From: Trichodelitschia bisporula
Lineage: Eukaryota > Ascomycota > Dothideomycetes > Phaeotrichales > Phaeotrichaceae
Reading direction: 5' to 3'
Length of the DNA: 64,000 bases
Assembly: GCA_010356995.1 (NCBI GenBank)
Contig: ML996699.1
Location: forward strand, 1-64,000
The translations under genes were made by a program, and so were the position numbers. The notes below the pieces were generated by a model. The model was not told where the DNA came from, did not search any database, and saw only the letters and a program-made list of their open reading frames with translations. Below are positions 52,936 to 55,944 of the stretch, one piece after another. Within the stretch, counting starts at the first letter, position 1, and each line of letters opens with the position of its first letter.

Positions 52936-55900
52936 ATGTCTTACCCTGGTTCTGATCCTGCTCCTTCTTTCCCTTACTCCCGTTACAATGTCGGGTGGAT
53001 AGCCCCTATGCTCAAAGAACGCGTCGCCGCCATCGCCATGCTAGACTCGACACACGGCGCGCCTGAAGGCCTGAGGAACACCAACGACCCGCTTTACTAC
53101 GTCTGCGGGTCGATGAATGGTCAAGGTGGGGTGCACTACGTTGTCATCGCAACACCGAACCGCATTGGACTTCAAGACGCCGGCGTCACGGCGCAAGCAA
53201 TGCTCTCTTCCTTCCCCAGCATCAAGTTCGGCCTGCTCGTCGGGATCGGCGGCGGTGTTCCCCAGGGGCCGAATCAGCCACTCGATGTCCGCCTCGGTGA
53301 TGTTGTCGTCTCAACTGAGAACGGGCATGAGTCCGGAGTGATTCAGTATGATCATGGAAAGTGGACGAGAGATGGCTTTGAGCCGAACTACAGATTTGTT
53401 GCCCCGCCGCCGGTGCTCTCAAATGCGGTCACACATCTGCGGTCTTTGTATCTCCCGAATGGAACGAACTGGATTTCGGATTACGTCGAAAAGATGCAAC
53501 AGAAATACCGTGGGCTCATGCAGAATGACACTTATGGCCAGATCGGGTATGTATATCCCGGCTGTGAAAAGGACACAATGTCTCGGGGCAGCTGCGGTGT
53601 TTACTACGAGGGAACTTGTCGCAACACCGAGTGCAAGAAGCCCAAGGTTCACTTTGGCAGCATCGCGTCAGGAAGCGGCGTCATCAAAGACGAAATTCAG
53701 CGAGAGTGGCTTCGGAAAAAGTGCATCTGCTTCGACATGGAGGCGGCCGGGCTGATGAATAATTTTCCGTGTCTGGTCGTACGAGGGATATCTGACTATT
53801 GTGATGGCAACAAGAACGATGCGTGGCAGAATTATGCGTCTGCGGTTGCAGCAGCTTACACTAAGACTCTTCTCAGCGTAATTTACCCTTCTGAGGTCGA
53901 GGGGGGCGATGACGGTGAATGATATCATGCAACGTTGGTCCCCTTTTCTTCGGTCACTGAGATACCAGTGGTAGTATGCAATGTAACAGTTGCTGACTTG
54001 GGAGCAGTCGTCCAGGACACAAGGGAGCAAGTCATCGCAATAAATCAGCAAGTCACCGCGCATGCCCAGAATCAACAGCAAATAGACGCCGACCAGCAGT
54101 GGCAAGCCGTACTCCGATGGCTGTCTCCCCTGGACCCATCCGATTCTCACCATGAGCATTACAGGAAATTGGCAGAAGGCACCTGCGAATGGATACTTCA
54201 GAACGAAGTGTACCAGGATTGGATCTCGGCGGAACCTAAACCTGATACATTGCGCTGCTACGGAATGGGGGGTGTTGGAAAGAATGTCCTCTCGTATGTG
54301 AAGTTCTCCCCTAATCCCAAGGATCCGATGGGCGAGAAGCATGGCATCCGAACCACAAGAGGGGTTAGCGTACATGTACTGCCAGCACACACTCAAAGCA
54401 ACACAGACCGGCATAAACGTCCTTGGTTCGATACTGGCCCAACTCCTGAAGCAGCGAATGCAATTTCCAGATGTTGAAGAGCAATTGTGTGCCTGCCACA
54501 AAAAGGACGCGCGACTCGGTCCAAATGAGTTGAAAGCTCTTCTCTGCAAGGTCTGCACGTCTTGCCCTCGGACATACCTTTTCATCGACGCGATGGATGA
54601 GCTGGAAGAGACGGTTCGACGCGACATCTTACGGGCCTTGCGTACTTGCTCTATCTCAGTTGAGAGTCTCTCCGTTCGGATATTTCTCACCGGTCGTCAG
54701 TGCATCAAAACTACGGTCGAGAACTATCTGACAGGAGGCCCAAGCATCACTGTGAGCGCTCGGGAAGACGACGTGAAGCAGGCCATCCATAGTGAAATTA
54801 ACGCTTCGGACCCAAACCAAATGGATGAACAACTCCGGATAGAGATTCAAGAGAAGGTTATTCAACGAGCAAATGGACTGTGAGTAGAGTGTTCCAGTCC
54901 CCATATCAACTTTGGACTCACATCAGTTAGGTTTTTGTTGCCTATATTGCAAATCCGCGCAGTTTTTCAGGACCAGACCCTTGCCGACCGCAGTACTGCT
55001 TTGGAATCGCTACCTGAGACACTCGAGGATGCCTTCGCGCAGACGCTGGCCAGAATTTAGGAGAAGAAACCAGAATTCGCGCTGACTAGACAGGTCATTG
55101 CATGGGTTTATCTGGCAAAGCGCCCGCTCAAGATTGGAGAACTCAGAGGCGCTCTCGCAATGAGACTGGATGACATCAGAGCGTGGCACACTGAAGACAT
55201 CCTACTCAGTCACTGCCAGGGCTTGACTGTTCTCGACAATGCAGGAACAATGCACTTGGTCCATTTGTCATTCGTCGAATATTTGAATCAACTTCCGGAG
55301 ATCTTTGGGTTCACAAGGTCCCAGTGGCACCGGAACATCGCCGACACCTGTCTCAAATGGCTAAAACTAGACTTCCTCCCACTTCGCCGTTCTTGGAGGT
55401 TTTATCCCCCCCTGGGCGGTTATGTACACCCACTAGCCGCTCAATCAAACTGGGAAAGGATACCCACCCTTAAACCGCTGATGTACGTCTCCTATCGCTG
55501 GCCAGATCACCTCCGTGACTGCACCACATCTGCGGACGACCAGCATACCCTTGAACTGAATCGAAAAGCTGCGCTCTATCTCCGCAAGGCCTTCGAGCAG
55601 AAGACTGGGAGCATCAGCCTATTGATGGAGAGGGTGTGCGATGGTATTATCGCTCACCTGATTGGCCACTTCATATTGCGGTTCGCCTTCGCCTTGGGCC
55701 CTTAGTGTCAGAACTTGTGGGCAGCAGAGAGGACGTGACTACTGTAGGTATACGGTACCTAACGCCGCTATTATATGCGGTAGAGGGAGGAGATATAGAT
55801 ATCGTGAAGATTCTACTTGGTATTGAGGCGGAGGCCGACAGTGACGAGGATACTTGGACCCTGCTGGAGAACGAGCTAAAGCGTGCGCAAATGAGATTGG

Positions 55901-55944
55901 GTTCTGGCACACTAGGGATGCCCCATGGACCTATGATACTCTAG
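52936..55944 (+). pseudogene. fungal NOD-like receptor (PNP_UDP-NACHT-ankyrin) gene with inactivating lesions
   Basis: Exons 52936..53914, 54008..54293, 54340..54879 and from 54931 join in frame. The N-terminal 320 residues are a nucleoside-phosphorylase-type domain (YNVGWIAPMLKERVAAIAML, FGLLVGIGGGVP, VRLGDVVVS, CFDMEAAGLMNNFPCLVVRGISDY). A NACHT domain follows with Walker A CYGMGGVGKNVLSS (Asn where Ser/Thr is usual), EGLAYMYCQH, Walker B TYLFIDAMDEL and ANGLFLLPILQI. TAG at 55058-55060 (codon 645) cuts the frame within ARI-stop-EKKPEF; past it the frame continues with WVYLAKRPLKIGELRGALAM, winged-helix-like, to 55705. Ankyrin-like text (PLHIAVRLRLGPLV, TPLLYAVEGGDIDIVKILL) then lies in another frame, so a frameshift is also present. 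Fungal NLRs sense non-self or bacteria and trigger cell death. The truncated first 644 residues could still be made. Confidence 0.8.

What the first reader, a model, noticed from the sequence alone, without database searches (positions are those of the whole stretch)
52936..55944. NOD-like receptor (PNP_UDP-NACHT-ankyrin) in a basidiomycetous yeast, carrying one stop and one frameshift
The three parts of a fungal NLR are present in order, and three introns join the first four exons perfectly, so the gene was a functional receptor until recently. A single TAG (codon 645) truncates it after NACHT, and the ankyrin part lies in another frame. Walker A ends GKN instead of GK(S/T). NLRs of this plan are best known in filamentous fungi; a copy in a yeast-like genome points to patchy retention or transfer. 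The first 644 residues (phosphorylase domain plus NACHT) could still be made, which would be a natural short NLR.
Basis: partly seen in the sequence, partly recalled or inferred. Interest (0 to 1): 0.8.

Follow-up and report, generated by a model that had tools for sequence, protein, structure and literature searches.

The report
Decayed fungal immune-receptor gene, ordinary host
A broken copy of a well-known kind of fungal immune-receptor gene lies here, but the genome looks like that of a filamentous ascomycete that has dozens of such genes, not of a basidiomycete yeast, so the copy is unremarkable.

Summary
The gene is real. 52936-55944 (+) encodes, in order, a PNP_UDP_1 domain, a NACHT-type P-loop NTPase (Pfam NPHP3_N), a winged helix and one or two ankyrin repeats, each above its Pfam cut-off. 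The TAG at 55058-55060, the change of frame before the ankyrin part and the GKN P-loop are there. No convincing intron removes the TAG; it is most likely a decaying NLR gene.

The taxonomic premise fails. The window itself carries PalH/Rim21 (387 bits), which a paper reports finding in no basidiomycete (PMC4393102). The genome has 37 HET-domain matches; Prp8 and FAS beta score best against filamentous-ascomycete structures. The host is a Pezizomycotina-type ascomycete, where such NLRs are normal.

It is no lone survivor: the genome has 40 PNP matches and 38 NPHP3_N matches. The relatives put in a tree are mostly young duplicates; the window gene is a long branch with, at best, one distant sister, and its winged-helix part finds no relative. 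Residues of the nucleosidase active-site region remain, so a PNP-only or 644-residue product is not excluded, but nothing supports one. Interest is low.

The parts
52936..53914 (+). exon 1: PNP_UDP_1 domain (326 codons, no stop); keeps E269 (DMEAAG) and D287 (GISDY), which lie in the stretch that aligns with MTA/SAH nucleosidases
   Evidence: Pfam 30.7 bits for 52936-53920, 27.6 bits within the joined model; alignment A1 and PDB profile search; PADLOC PDC-M60C 46 bits and PN-superfamily effector 38.2 bits
53915..54007 (+). probable intron 1 (GTGAAT...GAGCAG, 93 bases); holds an in-frame TGA at 53920-53922 directly behind the PNP domain; 12 in-phase solutions in all, so the exact borders are unsure
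   Evidence: enumeration; relatives L010, L011, L013, L015 and L026 show an apparent GTAAGT intron about 10 codons further on in the same linker (read by eye)
54008..54293 (+). linker and start of the NACHT-type NTPase, P-loop GMGGVGKN
   Evidence: NPHP3_N positions 1-39, 37.2 bits
54294..54339 (+). doubtful intron 2 (GTATGT...GAGAAG, 46 bases; acceptor at 54336 also in phase) or, instead, a damaged coding stretch
   Evidence: 7 in-phase solutions; the join leaves 13-14 residues after GKN against 18-19 in relatives
54340..54879 (+). rest of the NTPase; YLFIDAMDE (Walker B by recall) intact
   Evidence: NPHP3_N positions 50-164, 51.3 bits; joined model 84.7 bits over 1-164
54880..54930 (+). intron 3 (GTGAGT...TTAG, 51 bases), the only in-phase solution in the range scanned
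54931..55060 (+). exon 4, ends at the TAG at 55058-55060
55061..55702 (+). winged-helix (GPIID_WHD) part, in frame behind the TAG; no sequence relative found elsewhere in the genome
   Evidence: Pfam 30.3 bits, residues 8-76; own-genome search returned only itself at E<=0.001, though L064 and L001 carry GPIID_WHD by Pfam
55600..55669 (+). approximate region of the frame change between the winged-helix frame and the ankyrin frame
   Evidence: ORFs; the Ank_2 match begins near 55669; every GT-donor intron solution listed overlaps that match, but some GC-donor solutions upstream (for example 55568-55632) do not
55669..55944 (+). one to two ankyrin repeats, then a stop; no further ankyrin-like sequence seen by eye in the three + frames down to about 56500
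   Evidence: Ank_2 28.6 bits, Ank 27.4 bits; frames read

Best explanation
A decaying member of the NLR repertoire of a filamentous (Pezizomycotina-type) ascomycete. The ancestor was a PNP_UDP - NACHT-type - winged helix - ankyrin receptor. As inferred for NLRs in general, the ankyrin repeats would sense a ligand, the NTPase would bind ATP and oligomerise, and the N-terminal PNP domain would then act as a nucleosidase (in bacteria this domain cleaves ATP as an immune effector). This copy has lost its integrity: an in-frame TAG behind the NTPase, a frame change between winged helix and ankyrins, GKN in place of GKS in the P-loop, and a very short ankyrin array. Shown: domains, order, lesions, family context. 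Inferred: the receptor mechanism and the loss of function.
For: Domains in order above Pfam cut-offs. TAG and frame change with no convincing intron to remove them. GKS in 20 of 20 distinct relatives matched by the P-loop to Walker B pattern, GKN here. Family context: 40 PNP matches, the window included, 35 of them without a stop inside, and 38 NPHP3_N matches. Relics of the promoter and 5' end with lost start codons at C19 (302 bp, 80%) and C6 (172 bp, 73%), and a 150-bp relic of the NTPase side at C4 (85%), fit the decay of other copies of this subtype. Host: PalH/Rim21 in the window against passages of PMC4393102; 37 HET matches; Prp8 over 800 residues 1754 bits to Chaetomium thermophilum 9l5r against 1538 human and 1302 S. 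cerevisiae (organism of 9l5r from PMC11958768); FAS beta 635 and 610 bits to two filamentous ascomycetes against 488-514 for eight yeast entries (organisms recalled). PNP as a nucleosidase effector: passages of PMC10197012 and PMC11249213; PADLOC matches.
Against: The PNP exon is open over 326 codons and keeps E269 and D287; with about three lesions in the other two thirds of the gene an undamaged exon 1 is not improbable by chance, but it also fits a retained function. The window PNP keeps only 62 of the 93 columns invariant in 20 relatives, which may mean relaxed constraint or simply a distant lineage. GC-donor introns across the TAG and across the frame change exist on paper. No expression or population data. 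A sequencing or assembly error at the TAG or the frame change cannot be excluded. For the host: no rDNA was compared, and no basidiomycete was recognised among the Prp8 and FAS hits, so those two comparisons alone do not exclude Basidiomycota.
Confidence: 0.85

Rival explanations
1. A natural short NLR: splicing of three introns gives a 644-residue PNP-NTPase protein without repeats, which works as a truncated receptor or adaptor.
For: In-phase introns give 644 residues and an NPHP3_N match over 1-164, 84.7 bits; Walker B-like YLFIDAMDE intact.
Against: P-loop GKN against GKS in 20 of 20 distinct relatives matched; the stretch behind the P-loop is 4-6 residues short under the required intron 2; winged-helix and ankyrin sequence is still recognisable downstream, as after a truncation rather than in a settled short form.
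Confidence: 0.07
2. A PNP-only effector: intron 1 is not spliced and the in-frame TGA at 53920-53922 ends a 328-residue protein that is little more than the nucleosidase domain.
For: The frame ends directly behind the domain; E269 and D287 are kept. PNP_UDP effector proteins separate from NLRs exist in fungi (PMC9815663 passages). The nearest relative in the second tree, L029, lies in a 330-residue open frame.
Against: Linker and NTPase sequence follow immediately; the published PUASM pattern (FxGxGxQxxGxGxF) was not seen by eye at the C-terminus; no expression data.
Confidence: 0.06
3. One reading: an NLR in a basidiomycetous (Trichosporonales) yeast, kept patchily or transferred.
For: None found here; if true it would contradict PMC4986451, which reports no NLRs in yeasts or tremellomycetes (passages).
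Against: PalH/Rim21 in the window, 37 HET matches, Prp8 and FAS comparisons.
Confidence: 0.02

Closest known systems
PNP_UDP-NACHT-repeat NLRs of filamentous fungi (Dyrka et al. 2014, PMC4986451; Sordariales survey, PMC12258605; passages seen)
   Same: N-terminal PNP_UDP_1, NACHT-type NTPase, C-terminal repeats; ankyrins more abundant in ascomycetes, and 2-23 PNP_UDP NLRs per Aspergillus species
   Different: Here damaged: TAG, frame change, GKN, very short repeat array
PNP-NACHT paralogues of the same genome (for example L045, L047, L049, L052)
   Same: PNP domain 37-42% identical in 8 of 8 relatives aligned; the same NPHP3_N family (6 of 7 scanned)
   Different: PF05729 NACHT over its cut-off in 5 of 7 scanned, never for the window gene; WD40 in 6 of 8 neighbouring frames, 4 over the cut-off; GKS P-loops; 2 of 20 PNP stretches have a stop
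Bacterial PNP-superfamily defence effectors (Detocs and others)
   Same: PADLOC PN-superfamily effector (38.2 bits) and PDC-M60C (46 bits) match the PNP domain; PNP in Detocs cleaves ATP (PMC11249213 passage)
   Different: The best stretches lie in the C-terminal part of the domain; no partner genes of Detocs were looked for; enzymatic activity untested

Membership tests
Fungal NLR (PNP_UDP-NACHT-repeat class) | N-terminal effector domain (PNP_UDP_1) | tested here: met
   30.7 bits, cut-off 25.1; 27.6 bits in the joined model
Fungal NLR (PNP_UDP-NACHT-repeat class) | central NACHT or NB-ARC type NTPase | tested here: met
   NPHP3_N 84.7 bits in the joined model; PF05729 itself not matched, NB-ARC only 14 bits, below its cut-off of 23.5
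Fungal NLR (PNP_UDP-NACHT-repeat class) | C-terminal repeats (ANK, WD40, TPR) | tested here: met
   Ank_2 28.6 bits, one to two repeats only, in another frame
Fungal NLR (PNP_UDP-NACHT-repeat class) | functional P-loop GK(S/T) | tested here: not met
   GKN here; GKS in 20 of 20 distinct relatives matched. This lowers 'working receptor', not 'NLR-derived gene'
Fungal NLR (PNP_UDP-NACHT-repeat class) | one continuous coding sequence | tested here: not met
   TAG at 55058 and a frame change near 55600-55669, no convincing intron over either
Basidiomycota / Trichosporonales host | no PalH/Rim21 ortholog | tested here: not met
   PalH 387 bits at 59584-61731; PMC4393102 passages. The basidiomycete counterpart Rra1 was not searched for
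Basidiomycota / Trichosporonales host | rDNA (ITS, LSU) placement | not tested
   no rDNA collection at hand
Pezizomycotina host | many HET domains, PalH, conserved proteins nearest to filamentous ascomycetes | tested here: met
   no basidiomycete was recognised among the PDB hits, so Prp8 and FAS alone do not decide
PNP nucleosidase | catalytic Glu and Asp in place | tested here: met
   E269 and D287 are invariant in 9 of 9 aligned sequences and lie in the region aligned with MTA/SAH nucleosidases; that these are the catalytic residues is recalled
PNP nucleosidase | enzymatic activity on ATP or other nucleosides | not testable with these tools
   needs an in vitro assay

The most novel reading that the evidence does not exclude
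The receptor half has died but the PNP exon is still expressed as a free nucleosidase-type effector (or a 644-residue form without repeats), i.e. an NLR in the act of being turned into a stand-alone effector.
Probability: 0.1. Interest if true: 0.35.

Novelty: new member of a known kind. Interest (0 to 1): 0.12.

Why it matters
Had the host been a basidiomycete yeast, the gene would have contradicted the published view that yeasts and tremellomycetes lack NLRs (PMC4986451, passages). The markers say it is not, so the finding shrinks to one decayed copy in a gene family that is abundant in filamentous ascomycetes (mean 52 NLRs per ascomycete genome, PMC10197012 passage). Its use is as a caution about naming a host from a window alone, and as one data point on turnover of the ankyrin-type subclass in a genome whose PNP-NACHT relatives, where readable, carry WD40 repeats.

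Tried and rejected
Host identity: I expected the Prp8 structure 9l5r to be Cryptococcus; passages of PMC11958768 say Chaetomium thermophilum, which turned the conclusion round. In one search (1320 residues) the top row was not 9l5r but 9r8v, 2876.9 bits, summed over two stretches that repeat the same part of the query (best single stretch 2257.8); 9l5r had 2744.8 in one stretch. With 800 residues 9l5r is first and 9r8v is level with human. A phenol-hydroxylase route gave 4 matches but no sequence. PalH against the PDB gave nothing. Reading on Trichosporonales hyphae (PMC11960055, listing and passages) became irrelevant once the host changed.

Giant open frames behind many NACHT domains were first taken for repeat arrays; they are largely runs of N (26 of the 63 sequences then held contain N) and were dropped as evidence. 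Whether the N runs are assembly gaps or withheld stretches cannot be told.

RIP as the cause of decay: TpA/ApT 0.61 and (CpA+TpG)/(ApC+GpT) 1.26 over the gene, against 0.64 and 1.18 for the whole window: no RIP signature.

An intron removing the TAG: with donors from 54990 on and lengths of 40-150, the one GT donor listed (GTACTG, 54993) would delete the conserved end of the NTPase region; the others need GC donors. An intron over the frame change: each GT-donor solution overlaps the Ank_2 match; GC-donor solutions upstream remain possible on paper.

Tree: one search used the window and 20 of the other 39 matches, those spanning most of the domain; 19 were left out. The remaining 17, mostly fragments, were not used. 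Treekit calls the placement unsure.

Homologues of the PNP domain in the plasmid collection: 4 of 72,556 records, 28-39% identity, all cyanobacterial; not pursued. No structure prediction was run. Paper searches on the claimed host group: 0 papers; 34 papers hold both terms, 10 listed, from titles and abstract starts reviews on human health and disease, none opened; 2 papers, one of them PMC4986451. Papers were seen as listings, abstracts and passages; none was read whole.

Full report
WHAT IS THERE. The stretch 52936-55944 on the + strand was searched in eight pieces, some overlapping, against Pfam. PNP_UDP_1 matches exon 1 (30.7 bits, cut-off 25.1). NPHP3_N, a NACHT-type P-loop NTPase model, matches in two frames: positions 1-39 with 37.2 bits and 50-164 with 51.3 bits (cut-off 24.8). 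GPIID_WHD matches within 55061-55702 (30.3 bits, cut-off 27) and Ank_2 in the last piece (28.6 bits, cut-off 27.3). The order is that of a fungal NLR. PF05729 (NACHT) itself was not matched by any piece.

GENE MODEL. In-phase GT/GC-AG solutions were enumerated over set ranges. Intron 3 (54880-54930) has a single solution. Intron 1 has 12 (donors at 53896, 53906 and 53915), intron 2 has 7; from its GTATGT donor intron 2 would be 43 or 46 bases. It leaves 13-14 residues between GKN and the next strand, against 18-19 in relatives, so the middle join is not perfect. Five relatives (L010, L011, L013, L015, L026) show an apparent intron in the same PNP-NTPase linker, about 10 codons further on (by eye).

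LESIONS. The TAG at 55058-55060 stands in frame; the listed solutions that would splice it out use one poor GT donor or GC donors and delete conserved sequence. The winged helix and the ankyrin part are in different frames; each GT-donor solution there overlaps the Ank_2 match that begins near 55669, while some GC-donor solutions upstream do not. The P-loop reads GKN. A pattern running from the P-loop to Walker B was looked for in 29 loci and gave 26 rows, 20 distinct genes after removing 6 second copies of the same gene under another locus id; 20 of 20 read GKS. Three loci gave no row: L056, L058 and L064; L064 reads GKS in a variant motif. The ankyrin array ends after one to two repeats, and no more ankyrin-like sequence was seen by eye downstream. 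There is no RIP signature.

FAMILY CONTEXT. The genome (25.65 Mb, 30 contigs; the window is C13:1-64000) has 33 PF05729 matches, 30 over the cut-off; 40 matches to the window's PNP domain, the window included, the other 39 at 35-58% identity, the highest over short stretches, and 35 of 40 without a stop inside; and 38 NPHP3_N matches, 37 over the cut-off, two of them the window gene. Of the 38 rows 29 cover at least 140 of 164 positions, 27 of these 29 without a stop inside. Of 7 long relatives scanned, 6 carry both PNP_UDP_1 and NPHP3_N (in L062 PNP_UDP_1 is below its cut-off) and one, L056, PNP_UDP_1 only, with N runs in its frame. Of 8 open frames next to NTPase domains, 6 show WD40 (4 over the PF00400 cut-off) and 2, mostly N, show nothing. 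In a tree of the window and 20 relatives the median end branch is 0.025 changes per column and the window's 2.08. With L029 and L031 added the window's is 1.57, and L029 is a possible distant sister (47% over 213 columns, support 91/96). The window PNP keeps 62 of 93 columns invariant in the 20 relatives; five relatives tested by leaving one out keep 93 of 94 to 100. The winged-helix part finds only itself in the genome, although L064 and L001 have GPIID_WHD domains by Pfam; the second NTPase part finds two weak relatives (24-25% identity). The ankyrin piece was not searched against the genome. DNA relics of the subtype lie at C4, C19 and C6; those at C19 and C6 have lost the start codon.

HOST. 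The title's 'basidiomycetous yeast' was tested. (a) 59584-61731 (-) in the window is PalH/Rim21, 387 bits; a passage of PMC4393102 says that searches found no Rim21/PalH ortholog in any basidiomycete genome. (b) HET (PF06985) has 37 matches, all over the cut-off; its abundance in filamentous ascomycetes is recalled, and some agaricomycetes have it too (recalled). (c) Prp8 over 800 residues: 1754 bits to 9l5r, 1538 to human, 1511 to S. pombe spp42, 1302 to S. cerevisiae (the last three organisms from the molecule name or recalled); 9l5r is Chaetomium thermophilum by passages of PMC11958768. In one search, with 1320 residues, 9r8v stood first by a doubled stretch (see Tried and rejected). (d) FAS beta: 634.9 bits to 4v58 and 610 to 7q5s (filamentous ascomycetes, recalled), 488-514 to eight further entries (yeasts, recalled) and 132-138 to five more (bacterial, recalled). 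I recognised no basidiomycete in the lists of (c) and (d), so those two cannot exclude Basidiomycota alone; with (a) and (b) the case is strong. The species was not determined.

LITERATURE (passages only). PMC4986451: NLRs missing from yeasts and not found in tremellomycetes; abundant in Pezizomycotina and agaricomycetes; PNP_UDP NLRs 2-23 per Aspergillus species. [quoted passage not shown] PNP_UDP described in bacteria as an immune ATP nucleosidase. PMC12258605: PNP_UDP_1 NLRs in Sordariales with NACHT or NB-ARC. PMC11249213: the Detocs PNP cleaves ATP; [quoted passage not shown] The repertoire here is of ordinary size and kind.

MECHANISM. By established knowledge of NLRs the intact ancestor would have used its repeats as sensor, the NTPase as switch and the PNP domain as nucleosidase output. 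The PNP domain here matches PADLOC models PDC-M60C (46 bits) and PN-superfamily effector (38.2 bits), and the family profile aligns with MTA/SAH nucleosidases around the DMEAAG and GISDY motifs (34 PDB sequences at E<=0.001, best 9e-8). That the present gene works is not supported: TAG, frame change and GKN argue for decay. That exon 1 could still yield a product is not excluded.

VERDICT. Observation largely right, host wrong, interpretation of rarity wrong. A decayed copy in a common family of a filamentous ascomycete. Interest 0.12.

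Noticed in passing
own genome, e.g. L045, L046, L048-L053, L056, L057, L060, L062: The region behind many PNP-NACHT genes reads as a run of N (12 of the 20 regions; 26 of 63 sequences held). If these are assembly gaps, the WD40 arrays may be too repetitive for the reads; they could also be withheld stretches.
   Followed up: partly
ends of contigs C4 (both), C5, C10, C19, C24, C27, C29, C30: A PNP match lies within about 3 kb of a contig end in each case, as if contigs break in these genes or the genes lie near chromosome ends. 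The first 720 bases of C13 show no obvious telomere repeat by eye.
   Followed up: no
L041 (C19:489752-492829), - strand: The relic with the window gene's promoter and first codons is followed by an open frame containing PWLLIIDNADD, which looks like a decayed NB-ARC-type NLR (recalled motif, not tested).
   Followed up: no
G000:C26:369-830 (+) and C26:69825-70286 (-): Two HET-domain matches with identical scores (98.8 bits) on opposite strands, perhaps an inverted duplication.
   Followed up: no
window 59584-61731 (-): PalH/Rim21 ambient-pH sensor, 387 bits; important for the host assignment.
   Followed up: yes
L064 (C4:47500-50500), - strand: A 999-residue open frame (cut by the stretch; 1629) with a serine-esterase/PGAP1-like N-terminus (sesB-like class by recall), NPHP3_N at 157 bits and a winged helix: another NLR class with no stop in this frame.
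   Followed up: no
L029 (C29:14245-17895), - strand, match 1501-2151: A PNP stretch in a 330-residue open frame, the closest longer relative of the window's PNP domain (49%) and a possible distant sister; no NTPase match within several kb, so perhaps a free PNP protein.
   Followed up: partly
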